64,000 nucleotides of DNA from an uncultured Prevotellaceae bacterium (GTDB lineage: Bacteria > Bacteroidota > Bacteroidia > Bacteroidales > Bacteroidaceae), in NCBI GenBank assembly GCA_902801155.1, contig CADCHG010000001.1, positions 1-64,000 on the forward strand. Reading direction: 5' to 3'. How positions within the stretch are numbered: the stretch's first letter is position 1; the number at the start of each line of letters is the position of its first letter. Shown one piece after another: positions 17,097 to 42,219 of this stretch. The notes beneath the pieces are model-generated. The model made no database searches, was not told the origin of the DNA, and saw nothing but the letters and a program-made list of their open reading frames with translations. The translations under genes and the position numbers were made by a program.

Positions 17097-17099
17097 AAG

Positions 17100-17888: not shown

Positions 17889-18054
17889 AAGCCTAACCAA
17901 GCCTTCCCAAAGGGAAGGATGTTTGATTGTATTAATCCCTATGTGGGAGTCTTATCTATTTGAATTATTTTTTTTGATTGAAAATACTATCTACTCCCCC
18001 TTGAGGGGGTAAGGGGGGAGGAGCCCTCCCTTTGGGAGGGACTGGGTGGGCTTC
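17889..18054. repeat. Intra-operon cassette between leuC and leuD
   Basis: The right end, adjoining the leuC stop codon, reads GGGAGGGACTGGGTGGGCTTC and is preceded by CTCCCCCTTGAGGGGGTAAG. The left end, adjoining the leuD start codon, reads GCCTAACCAAGCCTTCCC then AAAGGGAAGGATG. The element fills the gap exactly from stop to start. Three short hairpins (CCTCCC/GGGAGG, CCCCCT/AGGGGG, CCTTCCC/GGGAAGG) are evident. Confidence 0.85.
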
Positions 18055-19446
18055 TTAGATCTTCCTTGGATCAGTAATAACGCCTGTGATAGCAGATGCT
18101 GCAACTACGAGTGGAGATGCGAGGACGGTGCGTGCACCAGGTCCCTGACGACCAACGAAGTTACGGTTACTTGTAGAGATTGAGAGCTTGCCTGCTGGCA
18201 CCTTATCCGGGTTCATTGCCAGACATGAAGAGCATGAAGGGAGACGAAGCTCGAAACCTGCCTCTTCAAGAATTTTGTCGATACCCTCGTCGATGATCTG
18301 CTGACGAACGAGCCAAGAACCAGGAACAAGCCATGCTACAACGCTGTCAGCCTTCTTCTTGCCCTTTACAACAGAAGCGAATGCACGGAAGTCCTCAATA
18401 CGGCCATTGGTACAAGCACCGAGGAAACAATAGTCAACTGGTGTGCCCTCAAGTTTCTGTCCTGGCTTGAACTGCATATAGTCAAGCATGTCGAGGAACT
18501 GAGTCTTGTCAGCCTCTGCAATCTGGTCGAGTGTTGGGATGCACTCGTCGATAGCGATACCGGCACCCGGGTTTGTTCCGTATGTGATACGTGGCACGAT
18601 GTCCTCGGCACGATATGTCACCTCCTTGTCGAACTTGGCATCAGCATCGCTGTAGAGCTTCTTCCACTCCTCAACAGCCTTATCCCAGTCAGCACCCTTT
18701 GGAGCGTACTCACGACCCTTGAGATATGCAAATGTTGTCTCGTCAGGAGCGATAAGACCTGCACGTGAACCCATCTCGATAGAGAGGTTAGAAAGAGTCA
18801 AACGACCTTCCATTGACATATTGCGGATAGCACTACCAGCATACTCAACAGCATAGCCAGTAGCACCTGATGTTGTCATCTGAGCCATGATATAGAGAGC
18901 AACGTCCTTGGCGGTGGTTCCCTTTGGAAGCTCACCCTCAACGTTGATGCGCATTGTCTTTGGCTTTGACTGAAGGATACACTGGGAAGCCAATACCTGA
19001 GCTACCTCAGAAGTACCGATACCCATAGCGATAGCACCTACTGCACCGTGGGTAGATGTGTGAGAGTCACCACACACGATTGTCATGCCTGGGAGAGAGA
19101 GAGCCTTCTCAGGTCCAACAACGTGGATGATACCGTTATCCTTTGTACCCATTGCGAAGTGCTTGATGCCAAACTCCTCGCAGTTAGCCTTGAGTGTTTC
19201 AACCTGCTTACGGCCTACTGGGTCATTGATTACCTCCTGCTGATCAGAAGGAGTATTGTGGTCAGGCATAGCGACTACGTGGTCAGGACGGAAAGCCTTG
19301 ATACCCTTGTCGCGAAGTGTGTCGAATGCCTGTGGTGATGTCACCTCATGTGCATAGAGACGATCGATATACAACTGTGTAGGACCGTCCTCCACGTTCT
19401 GTACTACGTGTGCGTCCCAGATCTTGTCAAATAATGTTTTTGCCAT
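18055..19446 (-). CDS. leuC: 3-isopropylmalate dehydratase large subunit
   Basis: A 463-residue aconitase-family protein. The Fe-S cluster ligands are visible in [16 protein letters not shown] and [18 protein letters not shown]. Other family landmarks are [25 protein letters not shown] and [22 protein letters not shown]. It works with LeuD in the second step of leucine synthesis. The gene follows leuA after 8 bp. Its stop codon is immediately followed by a repeat cassette. Confidence 0.96.
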
Positions 19447-19454
19447 TTTCTTGT

Positions 19455-20954
19455 TTATCTGAATTTATTTATTGCGTCAATATAAGCCTCCACAGAAGCT
19501 GTTACGATATCCGTATTGGCTGCGAAGCCATAGTATATGTGTCCGTCGAACTCCACGCTCTGGTGTACCTTTGCGAGATCGTCAGAACCCTTAGAGATAG
19601 CCTGAATGGTGAAGTCCTTCAATGTCATCTCACGCTTGATGATTGTCTTGAGAGCCTTGATGGCTGCATCAACAGGACCATTGCCCGATGCTGCTGCCTC
19701 GAAATGCTCGTTGGCAATCTGAAGACCGATGCTTGCAACCGCACGTGTGCCCTTACCTGCTGTAACCTGAAGGTAGTCGAGCTTCACATTGTTCATCTCA
19801 TTACGCTCAGCACCTGCCAGTACGAGGATATCATCATCTGTAACCTCCTTCTTCTTGTCGGCAAGTACGAGGAAGTCTGCATAAATCTTGTCGAGCTTCT
19901 CACCCTCAACATCCACACCGTTGATATGCAGACGATGCTTCAAGGCTGCACGACCAGAGCGAGCTGTCAATACGATGCTTGCCTCATCGATACCTACATC
20001 CTTTGGATCCATGATCTCGTATGTAGAGGCATTCTTCAGCACACCATCCTGATGAATACCAGAAGAATGTGCGAAGGCATTCTTACCAACGATAGCCTTA
20101 TTCGGCTGAACTGGCATATTCATCAACGAGCTTACCATACGGCTTGTTGGATATATCTTCGTTGTGTTGATGTTAGTGTCAATGCCGAGGTCTGGGTGTG
20201 TCTTGAAGATCATTGCAATCTCCTCAAGTGAAGTGTTTCCGGCACGCTCACCGATACCGTTGATAGTCACCTCTACCTGACGCGCACCACCAAGCACACC
20301 TGCCACGGTATTGGCTGTTGCCATACCAAGGTCGTTGTGACAATGGGTTGAGAGGATTGACTTACCTGCTGCGAAAGCATCAACGTGCTCATAGAGGTAC
20401 TTTATCTTCTCATGATACTCGTTTGGCACACGGAAACCAGTAGTATCTGGTATGTTGCAGACAGTAGCACCTGCCTTTGTAACTGCATCAATCACACGTG
20501 CAAGATACTCGTTGTCAGTACGACCAGCATCCTCTGCATAGAACTCCACGTCCTCTACATAGCGCTTTGCATACTTCACGGCACGAACGGCACGCTCGAT
20601 AATCTCCTCTGGAGTGCTGTTGAACTTATACTTGATATGTGAAGGGCTTGTACCGATACCTGTGTGGATACGGCCACGCTTAGCAAACTTAAGTGCCTCG
20701 GCAGCTACATCGATATCCTTCTCCACGGCACGTGTAAGTGCGCAGATGGTAGGCCATGTCACAGCCTTACTGATTTCTACAACTGAATTGAAGTCGCCCG
20801 GTGATGACACAGGAAAACCAGCCTCGATCACATCAACGCCGAGGGCTTCGAGCTGCTTTGCCACCTGAATCTTCTCAACGGTATTCAACTGACATCCTGG
20901 TACCTGTTCGCCATCGCGCAACGTGGTATCAAAAATATATAATCTTTCACTCAT
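19455..20954 (-). CDS. leuA: 2-isopropylmalate synthase
   Basis: A 499-residue enzyme that condenses 2-oxoisovalerate with acetyl-CoA, the committed step to leucine. Visible are [17 protein letters not shown] (N-terminal catalytic motif), [17 protein letters not shown] (metal ligands), [17 protein letters not shown] and a C-terminal regulatory domain (about 390-499) that binds leucine for feedback inhibition in the family. It is the first gene of the operon leuA-leuC-leuD-cimA. A leader-peptide attenuator (21003-21152) lies between its promoter and start codon, so expression should respond to charged leucine or isoleucine tRNA. Confidence 0.96.
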
Positions 20955-21002
20955 ATTTATATTAATTTTTAACTATTTCTAAATTACTTACGTTATCTCA
21001 AA

Positions 21003-21095
21003 GAAAAAAGCCTTCTTCACATCCCGAGCAGGAAGTGAAAAAGGCTCGTAATATTTTCCGCATCATAATTACCAGCACACCTTATCACTTCCCGC
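21003..21095 (-). promoter_or_regulatory. Leucine-operon attenuator (antiterminator/terminator pair)
   Basis: Terminator: AGCCTTTTTCAC pairs with GTGAAGAAGGCT (plus-strand 21009-21020 with 21035-21046), then a U-run at 21003-21008. The competing antiterminator is GCGGGAAGTGA (plus-strand 21085-21095), which can pair with TCACTTCCTGC at the 5' side of the terminator, one G-U pair included. It overlaps the 3' end of the leader-peptide gene. A ribosome stalled early on the leader would leave the antiterminator free. Confidence 0.85.
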
Positions 21096-21152
21096 CTCTT
21101 TTCGAAGGAGGATGTTAATAATAAGGGCTGATAGTGTGATGTTATTTGTCAT
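21069..21152 (-). CDS. Leucine/isoleucine leader peptide
   Basis: A 27-codon ORF in the leuA leader: MTNNITL, then SALIINILLRKEAGS, then a short tail ending CW and a TAA stop. Eight of residues 5-16 are Ile or Leu, including Leu-Ile-Ile and Ile-Leu-Leu clusters, as expected of a ribosome-mediated attenuation leader. Its last third encodes the antiterminator segment (GCGGGAAGTGA). It is too short for ordinary gene calling. The product itself is presumably without function. A closely analogous leader with Tyr/Phe lies before pheA, sharing the EAGS ending. Confidence 0.85.
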   Translation of the reverse strand: MTNNITLSALIINILLRKEAGSDKVCW

Positions 21153-21339
21153 ATTCCTTTATTTCTTTAATTCTGTTTAGTGATTAGAGATTAGTGTTTA
21201 GAGAGTGGTATCCACCAACACCCAACACCTAACACCCATCACCAAAAAAATTTGCGAGTGCAACGTGCAAAGCACCTCGCACGATGCAAATAGTGCATGT
21301 CAGCCCACAAGGCCGGCGCACGTTTTAAATTTGCGATTG

Positions 21340-21371
21340 CAAAATTAATACTTTTTCCTGACAAAAACAAA
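21340..21371 (-). promoter_or_regulatory. Promoter of the leu operon
   Basis: Minus strand TTTG (21368-21371), 20 bp, TAATTTTG (21340-21347). Transcription should start near 21333, leaving about 180 nt before the leader peptide. That stretch contains a GC-rich hairpin (about 21254-21282, TGCGAG...CTCGCA) followed by a U-run, and low-complexity CACCYAACA repeats near 21215-21240. Whether that hairpin also terminates transcription is unclear. Confidence 0.8.
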
Positions 21372-21609
21372 TAATTTGTAATAAATTTTACCTTTTCTAC
21401 TATAATTTCCTTATAAAAATGACGAATATCATCAAAAAAAGTAATAAATCGCAGTTATTTGCATCAGATATTATAAATGTTTCTTATTACCCACCATGCA
21501 AAATACAATATGATATACAAAGATTAATGGGATTTACGGACATCTCTACACCAAATTGTATTCAATCTATTGAAATACAGTATATTGTGGCGGTGTAGAG
21601 TTTTTAATA

Positions 21610-21684
21610 ACTTTACATCAACTCTACATCTTTACACCTTGTCATAAACAAAGATGATGTAAAGGGTGTATAGTTGGTGTAAAG
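21610..21684. repeat. Imperfect palindrome of TTTACACC/GGTGTAAA units
   Basis: ACTTTACATCAACTCTACATC then TTTACACC on the left faces GATGTAAAGGGTGTATAGTT then GGTGTAAAGT on the right. Both arms are runs of a 6-10-bp unit containing TGTAAAG or its complement. Further single units (GTGTAGAG, CTATACATC) flank it to about 21760. Together with the next three elements it fills the gene-free stretch 21372-22435. Confidence 0.55.
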
Positions 21685-21780
21685 TAAAAACGAACTATAC
21701 ATCATTATAACTTTCTATAAACCATCCATTTATATAGAATTAGGTGTAGAGTGTAGAGTTAAATGCTGAATTATGATAGA

Positions 21781-22056
21781 TTTTTTAGAATTAAACGCCA
21801 AACACATACACACTCGGAAAAACAGCTTCTAACTGTACTGATGGTCAAGAAGTTAAAAGCGTGTATGTGTTTGTCTAACATATACACAACACATACACAA
21901 CACGTACACAAGTTGTCACGATCTTTGTGTATATGGTGTGTACGACTTGTGTATATGTTCACCAAACACGTACACGCCCATAAACTATCTGATTAACAAC
22001 TTGTTACCCTTTCATTTTTGCCCCCGTGTATGTGTTTGGCGTTTAATCCTAAAAAA
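21781..22056. repeat. MITE-like nested palindrome with 28-31-bp outer arms
   Basis: The outer arms (about 21781-21813 and 22026-22056) both contain AACGCCAAACACATACAC or its complement, with only one or two mismatches. Inside, tandem CACATACACAA units (about 21882-21912) face TTGTGTATATGGTGTGTAC units (about 21930-21958). The element is about 275 bp. No transposase ORF is present; reading frames across it are repeat translations. No target-site duplication is obvious. Confidence 0.7.
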
Positions 22057-22084
22057 AAGTTCACTTGTTGTCAGTTTATGCCAT

Positions 22085-22190
22085 TACAGTAAGTCCGTTA
22101 TAATACCGTTATAGGTCCGTTGTAAGTCCGTTCCTTAGAATGGGAGAAAAATGGGACTTACATAGGACTTACATAGGATTTGCAAGGGAG
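22085..22190. repeat. Palindrome of AAGTCCGTTATA units
   Basis: Units of AAGTCCGTT, TACCGTTATAGGTCCGTT and GTAAGTCCGTT on the left (about 22089-22133) face GGGACTTACATAGGACTTACATAGGA units on the right (about 22154-22182). Complementarity is centred on AAGTCC/GGACTT and is imperfect. Confidence 0.5.
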
Positions 22191-22203
22191 GTGTATAGGA
22201 ACA

Positions 22204-22341
22204 GGAAATTAATGCGACATTAACGTGATATTAATGCGACTTATATGTTTTCGCTTTGCGAACCTACATGAATTATTCGCTGAAGCTCATCAAGCTAAAG
22301 CAAGTTCTCATCAATAACACATTAATATCGCATTAATTTTC
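22204..22341. repeat. Palindrome around a GCTTTAGCTTGATGAG core
   Basis: The left arm (22204-22240), made of ATTAATGCGACATTAACGTG-type units, faces ACACATTAATATCGCATTAA on the right (22317-22337). The enclosed core, on the minus strand, contains GCTTTAGCTTGATGAG followed by TTCAGCGAA (22276-22303). It is a 28-bp near-copy of the cores at 6711-6767 and 34743-34768, although the arms are unrelated in sequence. Confidence 0.7.
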
Positions 22342-22435
22342 AGATTTAATTTTCTCCAAATTTACTTTCGTTTCGTTACTTCCATAGTACAAAAAGAAAT
22401 CGCAGACTTGGTTAAGCCTGCGATTTCATAAGTTT

Positions 22436-22879
22436 TTATTTCTTCAAAGGTATCTTGTCGATACGTGTCTGATGGCGACCGCCCTCGAATGGAGTCTTGA
22501 GATACTCGTTCATGATTACCTCAGCCTCACGGTTGCTGATGAAGCGACCTGGCATTACGAGACAGTTGGCATTGTTGTGCTGACGGATGAGATGTGCTAC
22601 CTCTACATTCCAGCAGAGACCTGCACGTACACCCTGATGCTTGTTAAGGGTCATAGAGATACCCTCGCCAGAACCGCACATTGCAATACCGCAGTCAACC
22701 TCGCCCTTCTCAATACCCTCGGCAAGAGCATGGCCGAAGTCAGGATAGTCAACAGAAGCATCGCTCCATGTGCCATAGTCCTTTACCTCATAGCCATTCT
22801 TCTCGAGATACTGGAGAACGAACTGCTTGAGTGGGAAGCCAGCATGATCGGTGGCTACGCCAATTATTTTCTTTTCCAT
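22436..22879 (-). CDS. rpiB: Ribose-5-phosphate isomerase B
   Basis: A 147-residue protein taken from the ATG at 22877-22879 (MEKKIIGVATDHAGFPLKQF); a longer frame would translate repeat cassette sequence. Hallmarks are DHAG, the catalytic Cys in GIAMCGSGEGISMTLNKHQGVRAGLC and the phosphate-binding HNNANCLVMPGRFI. It interconverts ribose-5- and ribulose-5-phosphate. It is last in the pentose operon, 210 bp after tkt, the gap being a repeat cassette, so it should complete the non-oxidative pentose phosphate branch that takes arabinose carbon onward. Confidence 0.94.
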   Translation of the reverse strand: MEKKIIGVATDHAGFPLKQFVLQYLEKNGYEVKDYGTWSDASVDYPDFGHALAEGIEKGEVDCGIAMCGSGEGISMTLNKHQGVRAGLCWNVEVAHLIRQHNNANCLVMPGRFISNREAEVIMNEYLKTPFEGGRHQTRIDKIPLKK

Positions 22880-23089
22880 AAAATGCCTAACCAAGCCTTC
22901 CCAAAGGGAAGGATGTTTGATAGTAATAATAGCTATCACCCTACCCTTCGAGAAGACTTGGTGTTTAAATTGTTATTTTATTATCAATAATTCAAGACCA
23001 CTCTTCCATTGCCCTCAAGTAGTAACTACTCCCCCTGGAGGGGGTGAGGGGGGTGGAACCCTCCCCTTGGGAGGGACTGGGTGGGCTTC
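22880..23089. repeat. Intra-operon cassette between tkt and rpiB
   Basis: The left end at the rpiB start is GCCTAACCAAGCCTTCCC with its AAAGGGAAGGATG continuation (about 22885-22917). The right end at the tkt stop is CTCCCCCTGGAGGGGGTGAG, then GGAGGGACTGGGTGGGCTTC (about 23030-23089). The middle is AT-rich spacer. It has the same layout as the cassette between leuC and leuD. Confidence 0.85.
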
Positions 23090-25117
23090 TTAAAGCATAG
23101 ACTTAACCTGCTTGTAAACGTTCTCAGCTGTGTAGCCGAGCTTCTCGTCGAGCACCTTGTAAGGAGCAGAGAAACCGAATGTCTCGAGACCCCATACCTT
23201 AGATGCTGGATCAGCACCGATGAGGAAGCCCTGGAGGTTTACTGGAAGACCTGCGGTCATACCGAATACCTTAGCACCTGTTGGAACAACGCTCTGCTGG
23301 TACTCAGCGCTCTGTGTGCGGAAGAGGCCCTCAGAAGGTACAGAAACGATACGAACCTTAACGCCATCCTTGCGGAGGAGCTCAGCACCAGAAACGAGTG
23401 TAGAAACCTCAGAACCAGTAGCTACCATTACTACATCTGGATTAGCATCAGAACCAGCAACTACATAGCCACCCTTACGAGCCTGCTCATAGTCGTTACC
23501 CTCTGGGAGATTGTTGATGTTCTGACGAGAGAAGATGAGGGCTGTTGGGCTCTCTGTGTTCTCCATTGCCATTGCCCATGCAACTGTTGTCTCCTTAGCA
23601 TCAGCAGGACGAAGAACGAGTGTAGAGTTCTTGCCGTCGTGACGCTTGAGCTTCTCCATGAGACGAATCTGTGCCTCGTGCTCAACAGGCTCGTGAGTAG
23701 GTCCATCCTCACCTACACGGAATGCGTCGTGAGTCCAGATGAACTTAACAGGGAGCTGCATGAGAGCTGCCATACGAACTACAGGGAGCATATACTGGCT
23801 GAATACGAAGAATGTACCGCAAGCTGGGATAACACCACCGTGGAGAGCCATACCTACACAGCAACATGCCATTGTGAACTCGGCAACACCTGCCTGGAAG
23901 AATGCACCAGAGAAGTCGCCTGCCTTGAGAGCGTGAGTCTTCTTGAGGAAGCCGTCAGTCTTATCTGAGTTAGAGAGGTCGGCAGAAGCACAGATCATAT
24001 TTGGAACCTGCTCAGCGAGAACAGAGAGACAAGCAGCAGAAGCAGAACGAGTAGCATCGTTGTCCTTCTGTACGCACTTGCTCCAGTCAATCTTTGGAGC
24101 CTTGCCTGAGAACCATTCAGCCTGCTGTGCAGCCTTCTCTGGGTTAGCAGCAGCCCAAGCCTTCTCCTCTGCGTAACGCTCAGCAGCGATCTTCTCGAGT
24201 TCCTTAGCGCGGTTAGCGTAGAGTTCCTTAACATCCTCGAAGATCTGGAATGGATTCTCTGGATCACCACCGAGGTTCTTAACTGTGTTGATGAATGCGT
24301 CACCACCGAGAGGAGCACCGTGAGTCTTGCAGTTAGCCTCGTAAGAAGTACCGTCAGCCTTGAGGGCACCCTTACCCATGATACACTTACCGATGATGAG
24401 AGTTGGCTTGCCCTTAACAGCCTGAGCCTTCTCGATAGCAGCACGAATCTGAGCTGCGTCGTTACCGTTGATCTCGATAACCTCCCAGTTCTGAGCGCGA
24501 TACTTAGCAGCAGTATCCTCGTTCATAACCTCCTTAGTCTCTGTAGAGAGCTGGATGTCATTGCAGTCATAGAACATGATGAGGTTGTCAAGACCGAGGT
24601 TACCAGCGATACGAGCAGCACCCTGAGAAACCTCCTCCTGAACGCCACCGTCAGAGATGTATGCGTAGATAGTCTCCTTTGCGAATGTTGGGTTGCCTGT
24701 GTGCTCAGCAAGGAACTTAGCAGCGATAGCAGCACCAACAGCATAAGCGTGACCCTGACCGAGAGGACCTGATGTATTCTCGATACCACGAGCTACCTCA
24801 TACTCTGGGTGACCTGTTGTAGCAGAACCCCACTGACGGAGCTGTGCGAGCTCGTCGAGAGAGAACTTGCCAGTAAGGCAGAGCTGAGAATAGAGCATTG
24901 GAGCCATGTGACCTGGATCGAGGAAGAAACGGTCGCGACCTACCCAACTTGGGTTCTTTGGGTCATACTGGAGATACTCTGAATAAAGTACATTGATAAA
25001 GTCAGCACCGCCCATAGCACCACCTGGGTGACCAGACTTAGCCTTTTCAACTGCAGCAGCAGCGAGGATACGAATGTTATCCGCTGCGTGATTCAAAACT
25101 TTAATGTCGTTTGCCAT
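23090..25117 (-). CDS. tkt: Transketolase
   Basis: A 675-residue full-length transketolase. The thiamine diphosphate motif GDGxx(22-30)N appears as ISDGGVQEEVSQGAARIAGNLG...YDCNDIQL. Other landmarks are SGHPGGAMGGADF, GPLGQGHAYAVGAAIA, the phosphate-binding Arg/His in WTHDAFRVGEDGPTHEPVE and DLSNSDKT. It transfers two-carbon units between sugar phosphates. Its place behind araB indicates it processes xylulose-5-phosphate from arabinose. The upstream gap to araB carries a palindrome; the downstream gap to rpiB is a repeat cassette. Confidence 0.96.
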   Translation of the reverse strand: MANDIKVLNHAADNIRILAAAAVEKAKSGHPGGAMGGADFINVLYSEYLQYDPKNPSWVGRDRFFLDPGHMAPMLYSQLCLTGKFSLDELAQLRQWGSATTGHPEYEVARGIENTSGPLGQGHAYAVGAAIAAKFLAEHTGNPTFAKETIYAYISDGGVQEEVSQGAARIAGNLGLDNLIMFYDCNDIQLSTETKEVMNEDTAAKYRAQNWEVIEINGNDAAQIRAAIEKAQAVKGKPTLIIGKCIMGKGALKADGTSYEANCKTHGAPLGGDAFINTVKNLGGDPENPFQIFEDVKELYANRAKELEKIAAERYAEEKAWAAANPEKAAQQAEWFSGKAPKIDWSKCVQKDNDATRSASAACLSVLAEQVPNMICASADLSNSDKTDGFLKKTHALKAGDFSGAFFQAGVAEFTMACCCVGMALHGGVIPACGTFFVFSQYMLPVVRMAALMQLPVKFIWTHDAFRVGEDGPTHEPVEHEAQIRLMEKLKRHDGKNSTLVLRPADAKETTVAWAMAMENTESPTALIFSRQNINNLPEGNDYEQARKGGYVVAGSDANPDVVMVATGSEVSTLVSGAELLRKDGVKVRIVSVPSEGLFRTQSAEYQQSVVPTGAKVFGMTAGLPVNLQGFLIGADPASKVWGLETFGFSAPYKVLDEKLGYTAENVYKQVKSML

Positions 25118-25159
25118 TTTTGTTATTAAATATTAAATTAGATGTAAAGTACCTATTTG

Positions 25160-25277
25160 TTAAGTGAAAAATGAAAAGTGAAAAATGAAAAATACAAGTT
25201 TGTACTTTCGGGTATAGACATTACCTGAAAAATGTAATTTGTATTTTATAATTTTTCATTATTCATTTTTCATTTAA
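25160..25277. repeat. Palindrome of GAAAAATGAAAAGT units between araB and tkt
   Basis: The left arm (25160-25197) is a run of AAGTGAAAAATG units ending ATACAA. The right arm (25239-25277) starts TTGTATTTTATAATTTTTCA and continues with ATTCATTTTTCATTTAA. They are complementary over about 38 bp with small gaps. It is an AT-rich member of the palindrome class whose arms are simple repeats. Confidence 0.65.
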
Positions 25278-25283
25278 GAGGGT

Positions 25284-26915: not shown

Positions 26916-27060
26916 AATAAAAGCCTAACCAAGCCTTCCCAAAAGGAAGGATGTTTTATACACTCTGTCGCTTAAAAAGAAAGCTTAGTTATTTTATTTA
27001 ATTTATTAATGTTTATCTTACTATAAAGCATCCCTCCCTTTGGGAGGGCCTGGGTGGGCT
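26916..27060. repeat. Intra-operon cassette between araA and araB
   Basis: The left end at the araB start is AGCCTAACCAAGCCTTCCC followed by AAAAGGAAGGATG (about 26928-26954). The right end at the araA stop is CATCCCTCCCTTTGGGAGGG then CCTGGGTGGGCTT (about 27027-27062). It is shorter than the other copies because the CCCCC/GGGGG hairpin is missing. Confidence 0.85.
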
Positions 27061-28593: not shown

Positions 28594-28813
28594 AAAAAAA
28601 AACCTAACCAAGCCTTCCCAAAGGGAAGGATGTTTTATAGTATAAATGTAAATGCCTTACAATCAAGAAGACTTGGTATTATGTTAATATTATTTGTTTC
28701 TATTCGTAATTACGAAAATCGTCCACAATTCTCCCTAAGCAGAATATACTAACTACTCCCCCTTGAGGGGGAAAGGGGGGAGGAACCCTCCCTTGGGGAG
28801 GGACTGGGTGGGC
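28594..28813. repeat. Intra-operon cassette between araD and araA
   Basis: The left end at the araA start is ACCTAACCAAGCCTTCCC with AAAGGGAAGGATG (about 28602-28632). The right end at the araD stop is CTCCCCCTTGAGGGGGAAAG, then CTTGGGGAGGGACTGGGTGG (about 28756-28813). It fills the whole 220-bp gap. Confidence 0.85.
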
Positions 28814-29518: not shown

Positions 29519-29579
29519 AATAATCTGTTTTTATAGTTTATACGTAATTTTAACCGATTTATTGTATATGTTGTAAGCC

Positions 29580-34721: not shown

Positions 34722-34725
34722 TTTC

Positions 34726-35538: not shown

Positions 35539-35544
35539 CATTGT

Positions 35545-35776: not shown

Positions 35777-35801
35777 GCTTGTCATTAGCAAATAAAAAGA
35801 A

Positions 35802-35836
35802 ATCCCCACGCTACCATAACATTGGAGCGCGGGGAT
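35802..35836 (-). terminator. Terminator of the Cys-rich protein gene
   Basis: ATCCCCACGC (35802-35811) pairs with GCGCGGGGAT (35827-35836). On the minus strand it is followed by TTCTTTTTATTT. It begins about 10 bp past the stop codon. Confidence 0.8.
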
Positions 35837-35846
35837 AACTATATCC

Positions 35847-36197: not shown

Positions 36198-36261
36198 ACC
36201 GTCTATTATATTTTATGTTATTCCAATTAAATATTCCGAATAGTTATTCTAAATCCAATTG

Positions 36262-36293
36262 CAAAGTTAATCTTTTTTCCCCTTATTCACAAT
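36262..36293 (-). promoter_or_regulatory. Promoter of the Cys-rich protein gene
   Basis: Minus strand ATTG (36290-36293), 20 bp, TAACTTTG (36262-36269). Confidence 0.7.
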
Positions 36294-36342
36294 GTTTTTT
36301 GATTTTTTTTGAATTTCGTAAGAAATATTATAAAACAAAAAT

Positions 36343-36378
36343 ATGCCTATCAGAATCAATACTGGCTCTGATAGGCAT
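36343..36378 (-). terminator. Terminator of the barrel-protein pair
   Basis: ATGCCTATCAGA (36343-36354) and TCTGATAGGCAT (36367-36378) form a perfect 12-bp stem. On the minus strand ATTTTTGTTTT follows. It ends the operon of the two outer-membrane paralogues. Confidence 0.85.
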
Positions 36379-36398
36379 ACTCAATTTTCTACATTATC

Positions 36399-37184
36399 TT
36401 ATCTCTTACGAAGAGGCAAGCGATAGCCTATTGTAAGGTCGAAAGCCTGATTGCGAAGATAATAATCGCCATCCTTTGCACACTTCATGAGTGGAAGATG
36501 ATATGTAGCATTCACGTTGAAATTATTGAATTCGTAGGTGAGACCGAGAGGAACTGCAACATTGAATTTTTTTAAGACATCATCAATATCTTCATTGTCA
36601 CCTCCTTCACTCTCTGGTAATTCCCCGTTCTCATCAGGTTTTGCACAATAATAATAATGGTAGTACCGTTTTGCAAAACCCAATGAACCTTCTACACCGA
36701 TTCTAGCAGACAACCCAGATACTATGTTTTGCTTGAACTGAGCACCTAAAGAAATATAATCGAGAGTAATTTTTGTTGTGTTTGTTATAATACCATAAGT
36801 ACCACTCTCAGATACTAACTTCTTCAAATCTTCAAAACTTAAGTTTTCATATGGGTTATAGATACCGCCCTCTCTTATATAACTATTATCAAATCCTGAT
36901 GCGACAATAATTGGATGATTCTCTGTAGTTGCTCCCAAACGTCGATAATTAAGATCAGCTATTATAGCAGACTTGGTAGTTATTTGAAATTCAAAGCGGG
37001 CACCAGCCATAAAGTTTACTTTACCAGATGTACCATAAAAAAACTCTTGGCTATCCCCTGAAAAATCAGAATAGTTTACGCCAACGTATGGCACGAAATT
37101 GATAGAGCCCTTGCCATCTTGGGCATTGGCTACCTTTGAGCAGAGACAAGCAACTGCCACAAAGAGTAATGTTAGTTTCTTCAT
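36399..37184 (-). CDS. Outer-membrane beta-barrel protein, paralogue 2
   Basis: A 261-residue protein with signal peptide MKKLTLLFVAVACLCSKVANAQ, then GKGSINFVPYVGVNYSDFSG and alternating aromatic strands ending DLTIGYRLPLRKR. This is typical of the porin-like PF13568/OmpW-type barrels of Bacteroidota. Residues 1-90 are nearly identical to the preceding gene's product (37222-37992), while the middle loops diverge. The acidic insert ESEGGDNEDIDDV sits in a predicted loop. The pair looks like a recent tandem duplication with a conserved N-terminal half. It probably shares a transcript with its paralogue (37-bp gap). Confidence 0.85.
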   Translation of the reverse strand: MKKLTLLFVAVACLCSKVANAQDGKGSINFVPYVGVNYSDFSGDSQEFFYGTSGKVNFMAGARFEFQITTKSAIIADLNYRRLGATTENHPIIVASGFDNSYIREGGIYNPYENLSFEDLKKLVSESGTYGIITNTTKITLDYISLGAQFKQNIVSGLSARIGVEGSLGFAKRYYHYYYCAKPDENGELPESEGGDNEDIDDVLKKFNVAVPLGLTYEFNNFNVNATYHLPLMKCAKDGDYYLRNQAFDLTIGYRLPLRKR

Positions 37185-37221
37185 TCTTATTTTTTTATGC
37201 TAATTCTATATACTGATAATC

Positions 37222-37992
37222 TTATCTCTTTCGCAATGGCAGACGATAACCAATTGTAAGGTCAAAAGCCTGATTGCGGATAGAATATCCATCCTGTTTT
37301 GCGCAATGTGTAATTGGCAGATGATATGTGGCATTAAAACTGAAGTCCTTATAGTCATAGGTAAGGCCAAGAGGGATTGCAGCAGTAAAGAAATCTTTAT
37401 CATGGAAAACATCATCAGCATCTGACGTATCATCGCCTTCTTCACTTTTTCCAGTCTCTTTATAATAATAAAAATTATAGTAATGATAGTGCCACTTTTT
37501 GGAAAGAGTTCCAGTACCTTCCAAACCAACCCTTGCAGATAATCCACTTATTATATTCTGTTTAAACTGTAATGCAAGAGAGATGCAATCAAGTGTTATT
37601 CTTGTACTTTCACACGCAACTCCTTGCTGTTCCTTGACATTTTCAAGAATTTCTTCTTTGTTATAGTATCCATGTGCCTCCCCTGCGGAATAATTATTAT
37701 TTACAAAAGTATACCAAAGAATATTTTTATCCGCAGTTGCACCCAGACGGCGATAATTAACATCTACAATAATCGCTGACTTATCAACAATCTGAAATTC
37801 AAAGCGGGCACCAGCCATAAAGTTTACTTTACCAGATGTACCATAAAAAAAATCTTGGCTATCCCTTGAGAAATCTGAATAGTTTACGCCAACGTATGGC
37901 ACGAAATTGATAGAGCCTTTACCGTCTTGGGCTTTGGCAACCTTTGAGCAGAGACACGCAACTGCCATAAGGAGTAATGATAGTTTTTTCAT
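37222..37992 (-). CDS. Outer-membrane beta-barrel protein, paralogue 1
   Basis: A 256-residue paralogue of the next gene, with signal peptide MKKLSLLLMAVACLCSKVAKAQ and the same barrel start and C-terminal DLTIGYRLPLRKR. The loop region differs (SEEGDDTSDADDVF), as does the middle strand set (YKDFSFNATYHLPITHC). Its promoter (38046-38076) and signal peptide closely resemble those of the unrelated TonB-C gene upstream. The function is unknown; such small barrels may be structural or antigenic. Confidence 0.85.
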   Translation of the reverse strand: MKKLSLLLMAVACLCSKVAKAQDGKGSINFVPYVGVNYSDFSRDSQDFFYGTSGKVNFMAGARFEFQIVDKSAIIVDVNYRRLGATADKNILWYTFVNNNYSAGEAHGYYNKEEILENVKEQQGVACESTRITLDCISLALQFKQNIISGLSARVGLEGTGTLSKKWHYHYYNFYYYKETGKSEEGDDTSDADDVFHDKDFFTAAIPLGLTYDYKDFSFNATYHLPITHCAKQDGYSIRNQAFDLTIGYRLPLRKR

Positions 37993-38045
37993 TCCTGCTA
38001 TGCTATAAAAATAGTATTACCAAATGTTATTAAATTTTACGAATG

Positions 38046-38076
38046 CAAAGGTAATAAAATTCCAAGGAAACACAAT
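38046..38076 (-). promoter_or_regulatory. Promoter of the barrel-protein pair
   Basis: Minus strand ATTG (38073-38076), 19 bp, TACCTTTG (38046-38053). The stretch from here to the start codon is nearly a copy of that before the TonB-C gene (38610-38670), including ATTCGTAAAATTTAATAACA-like sequence. Confidence 0.75.
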
Positions 38077-38597
38077 CAATTTTCATACTTTTTTTTATCA
38101 GAGAATATCGGTAAAACATATCTCGCTTTTACTACCTTACCCTTATGCTTACCAGGATTCCACTTCGGCATAGCATCTATAACACGTATTATTTCCTCTA
38201 TTACAGCCGGCTCTGCAGAATTATCATATCGTTTTCTTATTATTGAGCCGTCGGTATCTATAACGAGCTCAAATATCACCCTATCGCAACGTTTTGTATC
38301 TTCAGGAATATTAAAGTTTTTCTTCAGATATTCTTTCAATGCTGGAATTCCACCTGGATATGAAGGTAATTTTTCTACAAAGTCATATATTCCGTCCTCG
38401 GGAGGGAGTATTATCTCTCTTATTACTTCATCTGAGTTCACACTTTGCTCTGGAATACTTTCAGACTTAACACTATCATTCTTCACTTGAACTATGGTAT
38501 CGCTATCTGATATCACATACAAATTGTCATTACTTTTACCCTCAACCTTTAGGCTTAGACATACTACAGCCATGAGGAATAATGATATTTCTTTCAC
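38076..38597 (-). CDS. Exported TonB C-terminal domain protein
   Basis: A 173-residue protein beginning MKEISLFLMAVVCLSLKVEG (signal peptide). A variable linker is followed by a TonB_C-like domain (about 75-170, YPGGIPALKEYLKKNFNIPED...FELVIDTDGSIIRKRY...AMPKWNPGKHKGKVVKARYVLPI). True TonB has an N-terminal membrane anchor and a Pro-rich spacer; here only a cleavable signal is seen, so it is probably a free periplasmic TonB-like domain of unknown partner. The signal peptide resembles that of the neighbouring barrel genes, suggesting shared 5' ends. Confidence 0.8.
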   Translation of the reverse strand: MKEISLFLMAVVCLSLKVEGKSNDNLYVISDSDTIVQVKNDSVKSESIPEQSVNSDEVIREIILPPEDGIYDFVEKLPSYPGGIPALKEYLKKNFNIPEDTKRCDRVIFELVIDTDGSIIRKRYDNSAEPAVIEEIIRVIDAMPKWNPGKHKGKVVKARYVLPIFSDKKKYEN

Positions 38598-38650
38598 CCT
38601 ATAATTGTTTTATGAATAGTTTTACCTTATGTTACTAAATTTTACGAATG

Positions 38651-38681
38651 CAAAGGTAATAAAAATTCGAGATAACGCAAT
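38651..38681 (-). promoter_or_regulatory. Promoter of the TonB-C gene
   Basis: Minus strand ATTG (38678-38681), 19 bp, TACCTTTG (38651-38658), followed by sequence almost the same as the barrel-pair promoter region. Confidence 0.75.
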
Positions 38682-38760
38682 CGAAAGTCCGACTTTTTTA
38701 TGTTATTCCTATGTTTTTCGTGTTTTATATCTTTTCCGTCAGAAAGCAATTCCTCCTATG

Positions 38761-38840
38761 TTCCTCCTAACCAAACTCGGTGCAAACTCGATGAAAATCC
38801 GTTCCTTCACCGACTTTGCACCGACTTTGGTTAGGAGGAA
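38761..38840. repeat. Palindrome with 30-bp arms upstream of tyrA's end
   Basis: The left arm (38761-38790) contains CTAACCAAACTCGGTGCAAA; the right arm (38811-38840) contains TTTGCACCGACTTTGGTTAG. The arms match over 30 bp except for two C/G changes, both at the same place in an internal repeat (AAACTCG versus AAAGTCG). The loop is 20 nt. With flanking CCTCCT and AGCGAAGGAT units it occupies most of the gene-free 38598-38973 stretch; no terminator with a clear U-run was seen. Confidence 0.8.
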
Positions 38841-38973
38841 GAGCGAAGGATAAACGAAGGTTCTTCCTTTTTACTTCCTACTTAATATGAGGGTTATTCA
38901 TCCTCCTTGTAAAAGAATTTTACCCTTTAATATCACCATTAAATCTGAACGAGAAATCCAGAATCAACGAAAT

Positions 38974-39678
38974 TTACTTGATATGCTGACGAATCTTTGT
39001 CAGATAGCTCTTCATTCTGTCAGCATCCTTATGGTCGATGATATCGAGAAGTTCCTTCAACTCATCACGAATCTCAGAAACCTGATCGTGAGTGTAAGGG
39101 TTGAAAAGGATTTCCTGAAGCAGATAGTCATCCTCACTAAGCACGCCCTTCGCTATGCGCATGTGACGCTTGAAGGTGGTACCCGGGGCGTCCTGTGGCT
39201 TCATAACGGCAGCAAACACGAATGTTGACACGAAAGGAATACTGAGCGAGTATGCCACAGTACGGTCGTGATCATCAAATGTATATTCATAGATGTTAAG
39301 ACCGAGCTCAGAGAGCTGATTAAGGTTGGCGAAGGTAGGACCGAACATAGGGTGAGTAGATACATAGCGACGACCAGTACTCTCATAATACTCTTTAAGA
39401 TTGGTCTTTACGGAAGAAATATCACTCAGGATACAACTTTCAGGAAGGTATGGCAATATCTCCTGAAAGGCAGGAATCGTGTATTTTACTGTAGCTGCGT
39501 TAATAACAAGCTCTGGTGCGAACTCACGAATCTCTTCAAGTTCTGTGAATCGCTGACAATTGTATGTGTAGCGCAAACGCTGTGGGTTCTTCTCAAATAC
39601 GCCAACCTCATGCTCGAAGCTGAGAGTGTCGATGAAGAAGCTGCCCATCTTTCCGGCGCCAAGGATTAAGATTTTCAT
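38974..39678 (-). CDS. tyrA: Prephenate dehydrogenase, apparently with internal deletion
   Basis: A 234-residue protein starting MKILILGAGKMGSFFIDTL (Rossmann fold, GxGxxG) at 39678; upstream codons are repeat cassette. DISSVKTNLKEYY and the substrate site THPMFGPTFANL are present, as is the C-terminal helical domain (VFAAVMKPQDAPGTTFKRHMRIA). It oxidises prephenate for tyrosine synthesis. Between FANLNQLS and ELGLNIYEY about 20-25 residues that relatives carry (typically ending near GKVFFKDLYQSL) seem missing, which could harm the active site or be an allowed variant. It is last in the aromatic operon. Confidence 0.85.
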   Translation of the reverse strand: MKILILGAGKMGSFFIDTLSFEHEVGVFEKNPQRLRYTYNCQRFTELEEIREFAPELVINAATVKYTIPAFQEILPYLPESCILSDISSVKTNLKEYYESTGRRYVSTHPMFGPTFANLNQLSELGLNIYEYTFDDHDRTVAYSLSIPFVSTFVFAAVMKPQDAPGTTFKRHMRIAKGVLSEDDYLLQEILFNPYTHDQVSEIRDELKELLDIIDHKDADRMKSYLTKIRQHIK

Positions 39679-39813
39679 ATAGCCTAACCAAGCCTTCCCC
39701 AAGGGAAGGATGTTTTATAGTATTATAATTAATTATTGTATAACTCTATCACTAACCACTCCCCAAGGGGGTAAGGGGGAGAGGAGCCCTCCCTTGGGGA
39801 GGGCATGGGTGGG
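39679..39813. repeat. Intra-operon cassette between aroG/CM and tyrA
   Basis: The left end at the tyrA start is AGCCTAACCAAGCCTTCCCC then AAGGGAAGGATG (39680-39710). The right end at the preceding gene's stop is CTCCCCAAGGGGGTAAGGGG then CCCTTGGGGAGGGCATGGGT (about 39760-39813). The layout is as in the leu and ara operons. Confidence 0.85.
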
Positions 39814-40878
39814 TCATTTATTCACAATCTCCAACTGCTGACGTACAGATTCCTCGTGGATATGCTCGAAAATCTGCTTAACGAAATCAGCAGACATTCC
39901 GCAGAGGGCACCCTGAGCACCACGCTTGTCGAGAATCTCGTTGTAACGGCCTGTCTGGAGAACGGTGATGTTATGCTCCTTCTTAAACTGACCAATCTCA
40001 CGGCACACACGCATACGCTTAGAGAGCAAATCCATGAGAGAATTGTCAAGTTCGTCAATCTGCTTACGGAGCAACTTAATACCCTCAGTTGTAGAAACCT
40101 CATCACGAACGGTAAGGATAGAGAGGATATAGTCGAGTACATCTGGAGTTACCTGCTGCTTTGCATCACTCCAAGCCTTGTCTGGATCACAATGGCTCTC
40201 AACCATAAGACCATCAAAACCAAGGTCCATAGCCTGCTGACAAAGAGGAGCTACGAGTTCACGCTTACCACCCATGTGAGAAGGGTCACAGCAGATAGGA
40301 AGGTCAGGAATACGACGACGAAGCTCAATAGGAATCTGCCACATAGGGAGATTACGGTAAATGGTCTTGTCGTATGAAGAGAAACCACGATGAATCGCAC
40401 CAAGCTGCTTTACACCTGCAGCATTAAGACGCTCAAGAGCACCAATCCAGAGCTCAAGATCCGGGTTTACAGGATTCTTTACGAGTATAGGCTTGTCATA
40501 TCCCTGAAGGGCATCAGCAAGAGCCTGCATAGCAAATGGGTTGGCTGATGTACGTGCACCAATCCAAAGGATATCCATATCATATTTGTTGGCAAGCTCA
40601 ACGTGCTCAGGGGTAGCAACCTCAGTACCCATAAGCATACCCGTCTCTTTCTTTGCCTCAACCATCCACTTAAGAGCAGGCTCACCATGTCCCTCGAAGC
40701 CTCCCGGCTTTGTACGAGGCTTCCACACACCAGCGCGGAAGATGTGGCATCCCTTCTCAGCAAGCTGAGTTGCCGTTTTCATTACCTGTTCTTCTGTCTC
40801 TGCCGAGCATGGGCCTGCAATTACAAAAGGACGTTTCAAATCACTTGGAAGATTAAGTGGTGAAAGTTGTAGTTCCAT
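39814..40878 (-). CDS. Bifunctional DAHP synthase / chorismate mutase
   Basis: A 354-residue fusion. Residues about 1-255 form a KDO8P-synthase-like DAHP synthase (VIAGPCSAETEEQVM, the metal/phosphate region FRAGVWKPRTKPGGFEGHG, ICCDPSHMGGKRELV). Residues about 265-350 form an AroQ-type chorismate mutase (LLRKQIDELDNSLMDLLSKRMRVCREIGQFKKEH). The first part makes DAHP from PEP and erythrose-4-phosphate; the second makes prephenate from chorismate. Fusions in this order are typical of Bacteroidota. It sits between the aminotransferase and tyrA, so the operon covers entry, branch point and both ends of the Phe/Tyr route. Confidence 0.94.
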   Translation of the reverse strand: MELQLSPLNLPSDLKRPFVIAGPCSAETEEQVMKTATQLAEKGCHIFRAGVWKPRTKPGGFEGHGEPALKWMVEAKKETGMLMGTEVATPEHVELANKYDMDILWIGARTSANPFAMQALADALQGYDKPILVKNPVNPDLELWIGALERLNAAGVKQLGAIHRGFSSYDKTIYRNLPMWQIPIELRRRIPDLPICCDPSHMGGKRELVAPLCQQAMDLGFDGLMVESHCDPDKAWSDAKQQVTPDVLDYILSILTVRDEVSTTEGIKLLRKQIDELDNSLMDLLSKRMRVCREIGQFKKEHNITVLQTGRYNEILDKRGAQGALCGMSADFVKQIFEHIHEESVRQQLEIVNK

Positions 40879-40904
40879 ATCTTAATGTATTTTTATTTCT
40901 TTTC

Positions 40905-42065
40905 TTAAAAAATTTTCTTGATTCTCTCCAGAGCCTCCTGTATCTTCTCCTCCTTTGCACAAAGGGAGATGCGGATATAGCGCTCGCCATTGCTTCCGAA
41001 GATGAAACCTGGAGTGATGAAGACACGAGCCTCGTGGAGAACCTTCTCTGTGAGTTCCTCGCATGTCTTGTAATGCTCAGGAATACGTCCCCAGAGGAAC
41101 ATTCCTACCTGAGTATTGTCGTAGGTACATCCAAGTACATCCATTATCTTCTCTGCAACATCACGACGCTTGCGATAGAGAACCACATTAGCCTCATGAT
41201 GCCATTCCGGAGTATTGTTGTTGAGAGCCTCGGCAGCAGCCAACTGTATTCCGCGGAAGGTACCAGAGTCGATATTAGACTTTATCTTGAGCGCCCAAGA
41301 GATAATCTGTGGGTTTGATATACACATACCCACACGCCATCCCGGCATATTGTGGCTCTTAGACATAGAGTTGAACTCCACACAACAGTCCTTTGCCCCC
41401 GGAACCTGCATAATAGAGAGGTGTTCGTCAGAAAGGATGAATGAGTATGGGTTATCGTTCACCACTACAATATCATGACGCTTTGCGAAATCAACCAGTT
41501 TCTCGTAGGTCTCACGCATAGCACGACCGCCAGTAGGCATATTAGGATAGTTCGTCCACATAATCTTGACACCCTCAAGATTCATCTTCTCAAGTGCCTC
41601 GAAATCAGGCTGCCAACCATTATCCTCTCGAAGGTCATAGTTCACAATCTGCTGACCGAGAATCTTGCTAAGTGATGTATAAGTAGGATAGCCAGGATTT
41701 GGCACAAGCACCTTATCACCAGGGTTACAGAGAGCAAGAGTGATATGAAGAATACCCTCCTTTGAACCTATCAAAGGCAATACCTCTGTATCGGCATTCA
41801 CATCAACATCATACCACCTCTTATAGAAGTTTGCCATTGCCTTACGAAGCTCAGGCGTACCCATTGTTGGCTGATACCCATGAGCTGAAGGCTGTGATGC
41901 CACTTCCGCAAGCTTGTCAATTGTCTGCTGTGATGGTGGCATATCAGGTGAGCCGATAGCTAGACTGATAATGTCCTTGCCTTCTGCATTTAGCTTTGCA
42001 ACTTCCTTCAACTTCCTGCTGAAGTAATATTCCTGTACGAGATTTAATCTGTCTGCTGGTTTCAT
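40905..42065 (-). CDS. Class I/II PLP aminotransferase, aromatic pathway
   Basis: A 386-residue fold-type I aminotransferase. The PLP lysine lies in FNSMSKSHNMPGWRVGMCISNP, other landmarks are NPGYPTYTSL and TNYPNMPTGG (Asn/Pro of the PLP site), and the C-terminal FGSNGERYIRISLCAKEE carries the carboxylate-binding Arg. Its position between pheA and aroG/CM indicates transamination of phenylpyruvate/hydroxyphenylpyruvate or prephenate, although closely related proteins act on LL-diaminopimelate. The preceding gap to pheA is a repeat cassette, with a 26-bp gap to the next gene. Confidence 0.88.
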   Translation of the reverse strand: MKPADRLNLVQEYYFSRKLKEVAKLNAEGKDIISLAIGSPDMPPSQQTIDKLAEVASQPSAHGYQPTMGTPELRKAMANFYKRWYDVDVNADTEVLPLIGSKEGILHITLALCNPGDKVLVPNPGYPTYTSLSKILGQQIVNYDLREDNGWQPDFEALEKMNLEGVKIMWTNYPNMPTGGRAMRETYEKLVDFAKRHDIVVVNDNPYSFILSDEHLSIMQVPGAKDCCVEFNSMSKSHNMPGWRVGMCISNPQIISWALKIKSNIDSGTFRGIQLAAAEALNNNTPEWHHEANVVLYRKRRDVAEKIMDVLGCTYDNTQVGMFLWGRIPEHYKTCEELTEKVLHEARVFITPGFIFGSNGERYIRISLCAKEEKIQEALERIKKIF

Positions 42066-42219
42066 AAAGAAGACCCCCTATCCCCCCAAGGGGGAACTTT
42101 TTATAGTAATGATTGCTCACTACTAACCGCTGAGGCTTCACGGATATTTTTGATTTGTACTTTTTAATGTTTATCTGTCTATAAAACATCCCTCCCTTGG
42201 GGAGGGCCTGGGTGGGTCT
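42066..42219. repeat. Intra-operon cassette between pheA and the aminotransferase
   Basis: The right end at the pheA stop is CATCCCTCCCTTGGGGAGGG then CCTGGGTGGGTC (about 42188-42219). The left end, next to the aminotransferase start, is a different version (GACCCCCTATCCCCCCAAGG GGG), lacking the GCCTAACCAAGCCTT end. Confidence 0.75.

What the first reader, a model, noticed from the sequence alone, without database searches (positions are those of the whole stretch)
17889..42219. Repeat cassettes fill intra-operon gaps exactly from stop codon to start codon
At least six gaps (leuC-leuD, tkt-rpiB, araA-araB, araD-araA, aroG/CM-tyrA, pheA-aminotransferase, with a variant at leuD-cimA) carry the same layout. 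GGGAGGG(A/C)CTGGGTGGG(C)TT adjoins the upstream stop and GCCTAACCAAGCCTTCCC adjoins the downstream start, with hairpins CCTCCC/GGGAGG, CCCCCT/AGGGGG and CCTTCCC/GGGAAGG. Position and orientation relative to transcription are the same each time. They occur inside operons, not between them, so they may stabilise, process or couple mRNA, or be a mobile element with very tight targeting to intercistronic spaces.
Basis: seen in the sequence. Interest (0 to 1): 0.8.

Follow-up and report, generated by a model that had tools for sequence, protein, structure and literature searches.

The report
Hairpin cassettes filling bacterial operon gaps
In this bacterial genome (likely a gut Prevotellaceae) and its close relatives, many spaces between neighbouring genes are filled almost exactly from stop codon to start codon by hairpin-ended DNA cassettes that often differ between relatives at the same spot; some relatives' cassettes with such ends carry a small gene related to DNA-cutting enzymes, so they are likely a family of mobile elements specialised for operon gaps.

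Summary
Five of the six named gaps have both end motifs; the sixth (pheA-aminotransferase) has the stop-side end and a different start-side end. In the window plus 74 fetched stretches of this genome there are 99 T and 44 G ends, forming 47 paired cassettes: 38 between codirectional genes, 7 convergent, 1 divergent, 1 undetermined. The space left outside a codirectional cassette has a median of 9 bp, against 113 bp for element-free gaps. T and G are versions of one ~42-bp hairpin end; spacers are mostly unique; no target-site duplication was found. In relatives with 91-96% identical leuC DNA the leuC-leuD gap holds the same cassette, other hairpin cassettes or a repeat tract; the next gap is empty in one. 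Other genomes have a DUF559 nuclease-like ORF between such ends; cassettes with A/T-rich arms carry an IVP ORF. None of 22 Y1_Tnp loci has T or G ends beside the gene. Best reading: REPIN/MITE-like non-autonomous elements of a family whose full members carry DUF559. Mobilisation by DUF559 and RNA-level excision are inferred, not shown. Side finding: about an eighth of T ends read through into ORFs, many as signal-peptide-like starts.

The parts
17889..18054 (-). leuC-leuD gap: G end at the leuC stop, T end 2 bp before the leuD ATG, spacer between
   Evidence: predicted arm-arm pairing, z -3.4
22880..23089 (-). tkt-rpiB gap: G...T cassette; relative G064 has a DUF559-bearing cassette here
   Evidence: mainly local hairpins predicted, z -5.2
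26916..27060 (-). araA-kinase (xylulokinase/araB-like) gap: G...T cassette; inner sequence ATAGTAAGATAAAC shared with DUF559-bearing elements
   Evidence: z -6.7
28594..28813 (-). araD-araA gap: G...T cassette; relative G061 has an IVP-bearing cassette here
   Evidence: weak fold signal, z -1.8
39679..39813 (-). DAHP synthase/chorismate mutase-tyrA gap: G...T cassette
   Evidence: z -3.6
42066..42219 (-). pheA-aminotransferase gap: G end at the stop, a third end type (C-rich, ...CCCCCTTGGGGGG...) at the start side; no T end
   Evidence: z -3.8
17097..17276 (-). leuD-cimA gap: cassette with CCCCTCACC...GGTGAGGGG arms; the same arm family flanks DUF559 ORFs in relatives (L258, L259, L260, L262)
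   Evidence: z -9.6
25118..25283 (-). kinase-tkt gap: cassette with A/T-rich repeated-word arms (AAATGAAAAATG...CATTTTTCATTT)
   Evidence: inverted-repeat score 52; z -5.1

Best explanation
The gaps hold hairpin-ended cassettes of one dispersed repeat family that lies tight between the stop codon of one gene and the start codon of the next, and they are most likely non-autonomous relatives of elements that carry a DUF559 nuclease-like gene between the same ends. Shown: ~42-bp ends that are versions of one sequence, mostly unique spacers, different cassettes at the same gap in close relatives, no target duplication, DUF559 ORFs between T or G ends in other genomes. Inferred: DUF559, a Vsr-type nuclease family whose nearest solved relatives include a mobile-intron endonuclease, cuts DNA and lets a cassette be copied into tight stop-start junctions by repair. 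Also inferred: in mRNA the two arms pair, loop the cassette out and bring stop and start together, so the insertion is tolerated; the duplex would be cut as in 23S rRNA intervening sequences.
For: Copies: 107 T-end matches at up to 3 mismatches, reversed-pattern control 1; 80 are exact. Sharp end module with information falling to near zero after ~42 bp and only an A-rich run outside (the first 18 positions were fixed by the search pattern). 38 codirectional cassettes leave a median of 9 bp, 108 element-free codirectional gaps a median of 113 bp, p = 1.9e-9. leuC-leuD: of 4 informative close relatives one shares the cassette, two have other hairpin cassettes, one a repeat tract; leuD-cimA is empty (TAATG overlap) in one. 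91 of 184 close orthologous codirectional junction pairs have unrelated gap content while identity in the upstream gene stays flat to within ~9 nt of the stop (pairs overlap and the loci were partly chosen for T ends). Terminal inverted repeats: 13 of 35 codirectional gaps of 90-450 bp in relatives against 20 of 690 mismatched pairs. ORF flanks: 21 of 25 scored DUF559 loci against 4 of 142 control genes. DUF559 lies between facing T/G ends (up to 2 mismatches) in L130, found without a DUF559 search, and in L263, L265, L269, L281; L269 has exact T ends on both sides. A DUF559 ORF matches 3hrl (8e-19) and mobile-intron protein 3r3p (0.0018). An inner motif is shared by 6 of 47 ORF-less cassettes and 3 DUF559 elements.
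Against: No movement was observed. The two DUF559 elements of this genome have other arm types, not T arms, and the two genomes where T arms flank DUF559 have few T ends (12 and 5); in L269 no ATG start was found for the DUF559 frame, and the left T end of L265 carries a small insert. By eye, T numbers do not track DUF559 numbers. A nuclease alone does not explain how a cassette reaches new, non-homologous junctions. Most paired ends are heterotypic (T with G, 30 of 47). In the window itself matched ends stand out less: 6 of 16 gaps against 26 of 293 mismatched pairs. Three-base direct repeats at one offset are above shuffles (8.8 against 3.6%, best of 25 offsets). Fold signal is weak for araD-araA (z -1.8), tkt-rpiB prefers local hairpins, and one ordinary control gap folds as well (z -4.2). 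Arm co-variation in T-T cassettes is only slight and confounded by lineage.
Confidence: 0.55

Rival explanations
1. Classical REPIN/BIME elements: inverted REP-like hairpins spread by a REP-associated tyrosine transposase (RAYT), with DUF559 a passenger.
For: Architecture matches REPINs as described in PMC3116915 (passages): two inverted repeats, variable spacer, hairpin. REPs elsewhere also abut 3' ends, give stop codons and can lie in ORFs (PMC3733652 section 15). No target duplication of 4 bp or more. This genome has one Y1_Tnp gene.
Against: 22 Y1_Tnp matches from 15 genomes searched, 19 over the family cut-off: none has T or G ends beside the gene within the ~1.5 kb held on each side, some loci being shorter (one G end lies 1.3 kb away); 11 of 21 scored have other inverted repeats of their own. 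T ends are abundant in G065 (41) and G063 (26), where no Y1_Tnp was found; these assemblies may be incomplete.
Confidence: 0.15
2. Host-selected mRNA elements: the cassettes are kept because hairpins beside stop and start codons tune stability, processing or coupling, and they spread between strains by ordinary recombination in flanking genes.
For: Orientation bias 23 to 3 in codirectional T-G cassettes and near-absence from divergent gaps (1 of 47); predicted arm pairing. REPs within 15 nt of a stop codon are reported to lower translation (PMC12306157, passages).
Against: The same gap is empty or differently filled in close relatives; in the window the ends sit beside genes of unrelated pathways; T ends even sit in signal-peptide-like coding starts; recombination does not explain the origin of new copies.
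Confidence: 0.2
3. Nucleic-acid structure effects without any element: hairpins arise and are rewritten by template switching at replication, giving matched arms in freely drifting gaps.
For: Matched inverted arms of many unrelated sequences, including simple repeated words.
Against: 80 exact copies of an 18-bp end in this genome and the same end in other species need copying, not local rewriting; ORFs with conserved domains lie between arms.
Confidence: 0.05

Closest known systems
REPINs / REP-BIME elements with RAYT
   Same: Short inverted hairpin units with variable spacer, high copy, extragenic, often beside stop codons, sometimes supplying a stop codon or lying in ORFs (PMC3116915 passages, PMC3733652 sections 15-16)
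   Different: No RAYT beside T or G ends in 22 loci; both edges are usually tight (stop and start); DUF559 ORFs between the ends in other genomes; orthologous gaps swap cassette types
MITEs (for example BrickBuilt of Porphyromonas gingivalis)
   Same: Terminal inverted repeats, no transposase gene, intergenic, in Bacteroidales
   Different: BrickBuilt lies 49-591 nt from the nearest genes and has ends like those of insertion sequences (PMC4596501, passages); here distances of 0-10 bp to both genes are common, and no parent transposon was searched for beyond Y1_Tnp
23S rRNA intervening sequences (IVS)
   Same: Terminal repeats forming a long stem; IVP/S23 ORF in the loop, as in the A/T-arm cassettes here (PMC4990558, passages)
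   Different: Sits in mRNA gaps, not rRNA; T/G cassettes go with DUF559, not IVP; excision by RNase III untested here
Vsr-type homing endonucleases (3r3p, mobile intron protein)
   Same: DUF559 ORF is a sequence relative (E = 0.0018) and lies inside the element
   Different: No intron or intein seen; hairpin arms; many non-homologous sites instead of one homing site; activity untested

Membership tests
REPIN/RAYT | Two inverted REP-like hairpin units separated by a spacer | tested here: met
   94 of 143 ends form 47 facing pairs; profile of ends
REPIN/RAYT | Associated RAYT gene bounded by the same repeats | tested here: not met
   0 of 22 Y1_Tnp loci from 15 genomes searched
REPIN/RAYT | GTAG or CGTC tag beside the palindrome | tested here: inconclusive
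   T and G ends bear GCC(T/C)A(A/C)CC... instead; GGGGGAGTAG occurs inside the extended G end
MITE of a DDE transposon | Target-site duplication | tested here: not met
   102 elements: direct repeats of 4 bp or more in at most 3.9% at the best offsets; 3-bp repeats 8.8% at the best offset against 3.6% in shuffles
MITE of a DDE transposon | Parent transposon with the same ends in the genome | not tested
   Only Y1_Tnp, DUF559 and IVP were searched
23S rRNA IVS | Located in rRNA | tested here: not met
   The window cassettes and those compared with them lie between protein genes; rRNA genes were not searched for these ends
23S rRNA IVS | Excised by RNase III | not testable with these tools
   No RNA data; pairing only predicted
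DUF559 element family | DUF559 ORF between the same T or G ends | tested here: met
   L130, L263, L265, L269, L281 in other genomes, ends within 2 mismatches; not for this genome's own two DUF559 loci
DUF559 element family | Mobilised by DUF559 | not testable with these tools
   inference only

The most novel reading that the evidence does not exclude
A new class of bacterial mobile element: a Vsr-fold nuclease (DUF559), or in the sister A/T-arm class a four-helix IVP protein, spreads hairpin cassettes into stop-start junctions of operons. Each cassette loops out of the mRNA so that stop and start meet, junctions exchange cassettes continually, and one sub-lineage has become a portable start codon plus signal peptide for secreted enzymes.
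Probability: 0.25. Interest if true: 0.9.

Novelty: new variant of a known kind. Interest (0 to 1): 0.7.

Why it matters
If right, the intercistronic spaces of a gut Prevotellaceae lineage are to a large part a habitat of hairpin elements with rapid turnover, and DUF559 and the IVP protein, both of unclear function, gain a testable role as parts of such elements. It would also give a natural series of operons that differ between relatives mainly in the intercistronic hairpin, useful for studying mRNA processing and translational coupling in Bacteroidota, and a case of a dispersed repeat supplying signal-peptide-like starts.

Tried and rejected
RAYT mobilisation: this genome's one Y1_Tnp gene is flanked by other palindromes, and 0 of 22 loci have T/G ends beside the gene. 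Target duplication: none of 4 bp or more. 'Ends are gene-boundary marks, T always at starts': rejected, T also adjoins stops. Arms swapped around a conserved spacer: some convergent junctions keep a similar central terminator-like hairpin with different arms, but that stem recurs at other loci, so I draw nothing from it. Arm co-variation in 42 T-T pairs: slight (P 0.005-0.01 against shuffles), confounded by lineage, not used. Rfam: only two tRNAs in the window. Viral contigs: 0 exact T matches. Plasmids: no match for one cassette. Start-side divergence is unreliable because my gene caller picks different starts.

Literature: ten searches; among the titles and abstract starts they listed I saw none that describes DUF559- or IVP-bearing intercistronic hairpin cassettes, and no paper held all three of DUF559, inverted repeat and intergenic. 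Only open-licence PMC papers are searched, so this is not proof of absence. That REPs lie beside stop codons is known. Seen of papers: PMC3733652 abstract, outline and sections 15-16; passages only of PMC3116915, PMC4990558, PMC4596501, PMC12306157, PMC12907096, PMC5771137, PMC8040213, PMC11270868.

Limits: genes were called by a home-made hexamer caller; fetched relatives' loci are enriched for T ends or for the searched gene; orthologous gaps of several relatives are counted apart; assemblies are largely MAGs. Of 66 DUF559 and 71 IVP matches, 30 loci each were fetched, and 25 and 29 were scored. Of 10 facing T/G intervals of 350-1000 bp, six hold DUF559 matches, five of them fetched because of DUF559 (L285 not counted above, its frame runs far beyond the ends); one holds leuD between two cassettes (L221), three no ORF of note. 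output was cut; I read part of its 44 groups. That 'RUG' in record titles means rumen is recalled.
Full report
CHECK. On the + strand the T end GCCTAACCAAGCCTTCCC occurs at five places and the G end GGGAGGGMCTGGGTGGG at six places in the window (0.01 and 0.04 expected in shuffles). The genes concerned are on the - strand, so in mRNA sense the G end comes first, beside the upstream stop, and the T end last, beside the downstream start. Five gaps (leuC-leuD, tkt-rpiB, araA-kinase, araD-araA, DAHP synthase/CM-tyrA) have both. The pheA-aminotransferase gap has a G end and a different C-rich end at the start side; leuD-cimA has another arm pair. Names were checked by profiles.

ANATOMY. T and G read inward are GCCTAACCAAGCCTTCCCAAAGGGAAGG and GCCCACCCAGTCCCTCCCAAAGGGAGGG: the same length with 6 differences in 28, so I take them as versions of one hairpin end (sequence). 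Aligning 98 T ends of this genome gives a ~42-bp module, ending near TTTTATAGTAT, after which information falls to near zero; outside it only A's are enriched. Positions 1-18 were fixed by the search pattern, so the argument rests on positions 19-42. The same profile was seen in 124 T ends of other genomes. Many spacers share an extended G end with a second hairpin; beyond that they look mostly unique.

CENSUS. The whole genome has 107 T matches at up to 3 mismatches and 44 G matches at up to 2. In the window plus fetched stretches I count 99 T and 44 G ends; 94 form 47 paired cassettes (30 T-G, 16 T-T, 1 G-G) and 49 are single, many facing an end of another type. Of 47, 38 are between codirectional genes, 7 convergent (three of them with one gene over 400 bp away), 1 divergent, 1 undetermined. 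Of 30 T-G cassettes, 23 have G at the stop and T at the start, 3 are reversed, 3 convergent, 1 undetermined (counted). The bases left over between genes and cassette have a median of 9 (n = 38, quartiles 4 and 45) against a median gap of 113 for 108 element-free codirectional gaps (p = 1.9e-9; p = 0.006 against gaps under 100 bp). In several cassettes the TAA inside GCCTAACC is itself the stop codon. No target-site duplication of 4 bp or more was found in 102 cassettes.

RELATIVES. Exact T ends occur in 10 of 299 genomes sampled from the genus, this one included, and in named MAGs, mostly Prevotellaceae/Bacteroidales from rumen or horse; one, with a single T end, is titled Lachnospiraceae. Counts at up to 1 mismatch run from 0 to 94 per genome in 16 genomes. 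At leuC-leuD, four of five close relatives were informative (in G064 leuD is missing from the contig): G060 has the same cassette as the window; G065 another hairpin pair; G069 a T-T cassette with an unrelated spacer; G061 a repeat tract. leuC DNA identity to the window is 96, 94, 96 and 91%. At leuD-cimA, G061 is empty with stop and start overlapping. More distant relatives have 2-72 bp between leuC and leuD, except L228, which has another palindromic cassette. Over the window region many gaps show wholesale replacement, while others (for example 13017-13282, 29519-29579) are ordinary and conserved. Of 184 close codirectional junction pairs, 91 had unrelated gap content, 40 similar, 40 intermediate, 13 were tight; identity in the upstream gene stays flat up to about 9 nt from the stop. 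These pairs are not independent.

WIDER FAMILY. Many alternative fillings also have ends that are inverted repeats of each other, of many sequences. In relatives' contigs 13 of 35 codirectional gaps of 90-450 bp have terminal inverted repeats at score 26 or more, against 20 of 690 mismatched left-right pairs; 5 of 8 convergent gaps against 16 of 143, 2 of 4 divergent gaps against 4 of 57. In the window it is 6 of 16, where the mismatched background is higher (26 of 293), probably because five share ends.

ORFS IN CASSETTES. Two replacements contained an ORF: a DUF559 ORF at tkt-rpiB in G064 and an IVP ORF at araD-araA in G061. Searching 19 genomes gave 66 DUF559 and 71 IVP matches. Inverted repeats of score 30 or more flank 21 of 25 scored DUF559 loci and 20 of 29 scored IVP loci, against 4 of 142 control genes, one of which is itself an IVP ORF. 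DUF559 goes with GC-rich arms, IVP with A/T-rich repeated words. L269 has exact T ends on both sides of DUF559, L265 T ends of which the left carries a small insert. Among facing T/G ends 350-1000 bp apart, L130, found by the T-end scan alone, holds a DUF559 ORF. This genome's two DUF559 elements have other arms; one (L282) has, by eye, the C-rich type seen at the start side of the pheA gap. ORF-less and ORF-bearing cassettes occupy the same junction in different relatives, and an inner motif next to the arm is shared by 6 of 47 ORF-less cassettes and three DUF559 elements. A DUF559 ORF matches 3hrl (endonuclease-like) and 3r3p (mobile intron protein); an IVP ORF matches 2rld, uncharacterised. 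A DUF559 protein of Caulobacter is described as Vsr-like (PMC12907096, passages).

RNA. The eight window cassettes have fold z-scores of -9.6, -3.4, -5.2, -5.1, -6.7, -1.8, -3.6 and -3.8 (60 shuffles each; order leuD-cimA, leuC-leuD, tkt-rpiB, kinase-tkt, araA-kinase, araD-araA, CM-tyrA, pheA-aminotransferase); four ordinary gaps -1.3, 0.7, -4.2 and -2.2. In leuC-leuD, araA-kinase, CM-tyrA, pheA-aminotransferase and leuD-cimA the 5' arm is predicted to pair with the 3' arm, which would place stop and start near the base of one stem; tkt-rpiB prefers local hairpins. The Coxiella IVS has the same plan, a terminal stem with an S23 ORF in the loop, and is excised by RNase III (PMC4990558, passages). 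That such excision happens here is inference.

CODING T ENDS. 12 of 99 T ends here and 19 of 130 in other genomes are read through from an upstream ATG into an ORF; only two phases occur, the third holds TAG. Many give signal-peptide-like starts such as MLKRLFLLVLLSNILPFGKAWLGCYAQ (judged by eye, no predictor run); five ORFs of this genome share that kind of start at the same 51-nt spacing. At least L195 and L055 are probably false, since a likelier ATG lies downstream.

MECHANISM AND NOVELTY. Shown: a dispersed hairpin-ended repeat, tight placement, turnover, DUF559 between such ends in other genomes. Inferred: nuclease-assisted copying into tight junctions, tolerance through RNA looping. Against it: nothing was seen to move, T numbers do not follow DUF559 numbers (by eye), and how new sites are reached is unexplained. 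In layout it works like a REPIN (PMC3116915, passages), but the RAYT criterion failed, so I do not file it there. I call it a new variant of a known kind.

Noticed in passing
L171, L178, L179, L180 (two), L148, L173 and others: T ends translated within signal-peptide-like or lipoprotein-like starts (SNILPFGKAWLG or TIKHPSLWEGLVRL); five ORFs of this genome share the same kind of start at the same 51-nt spacing.
   Followed up: partly
L298, L305, L306, L310, L311, L315, L316: IVP (PF05635) ORFs flanked by inverted A/T-rich repeated words between codirectional genes: an IVS-like class of cassette in mRNA gaps.
   Followed up: partly
L039 and L318, L320, L321, L324, L329, L331: Y1_Tnp (RAYT-like) genes flanked by their own palindromes, for example GCCCTGAAAGGGC, with no T or G ends beside them.
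   Followed up: partly
L195, L265, L114: Small inserts of about 35-40 nt inside the T-end hairpin, as if another short element uses it as a target.
   Followed up: no
L156, L166, L194, L198, L217: Single G ends behind a shared leader (TAACTTTGCAGTCAGAAACAAG-like in four), in four of the five cases near contig ends: probably a separate longer repeat that breaks the assembly.
   Followed up: no
L139, L305, L316, L158: Cassettes, three of them at one convergent junction, that enclose a recurrent terminator-like hairpin GCCGCTCA(T/C)AGG...CCTATGAG(C/T)GGC.
   Followed up: no
window 49781-49957: Two tandem tRNA-Asp(gtc) genes.
   Followed up: no
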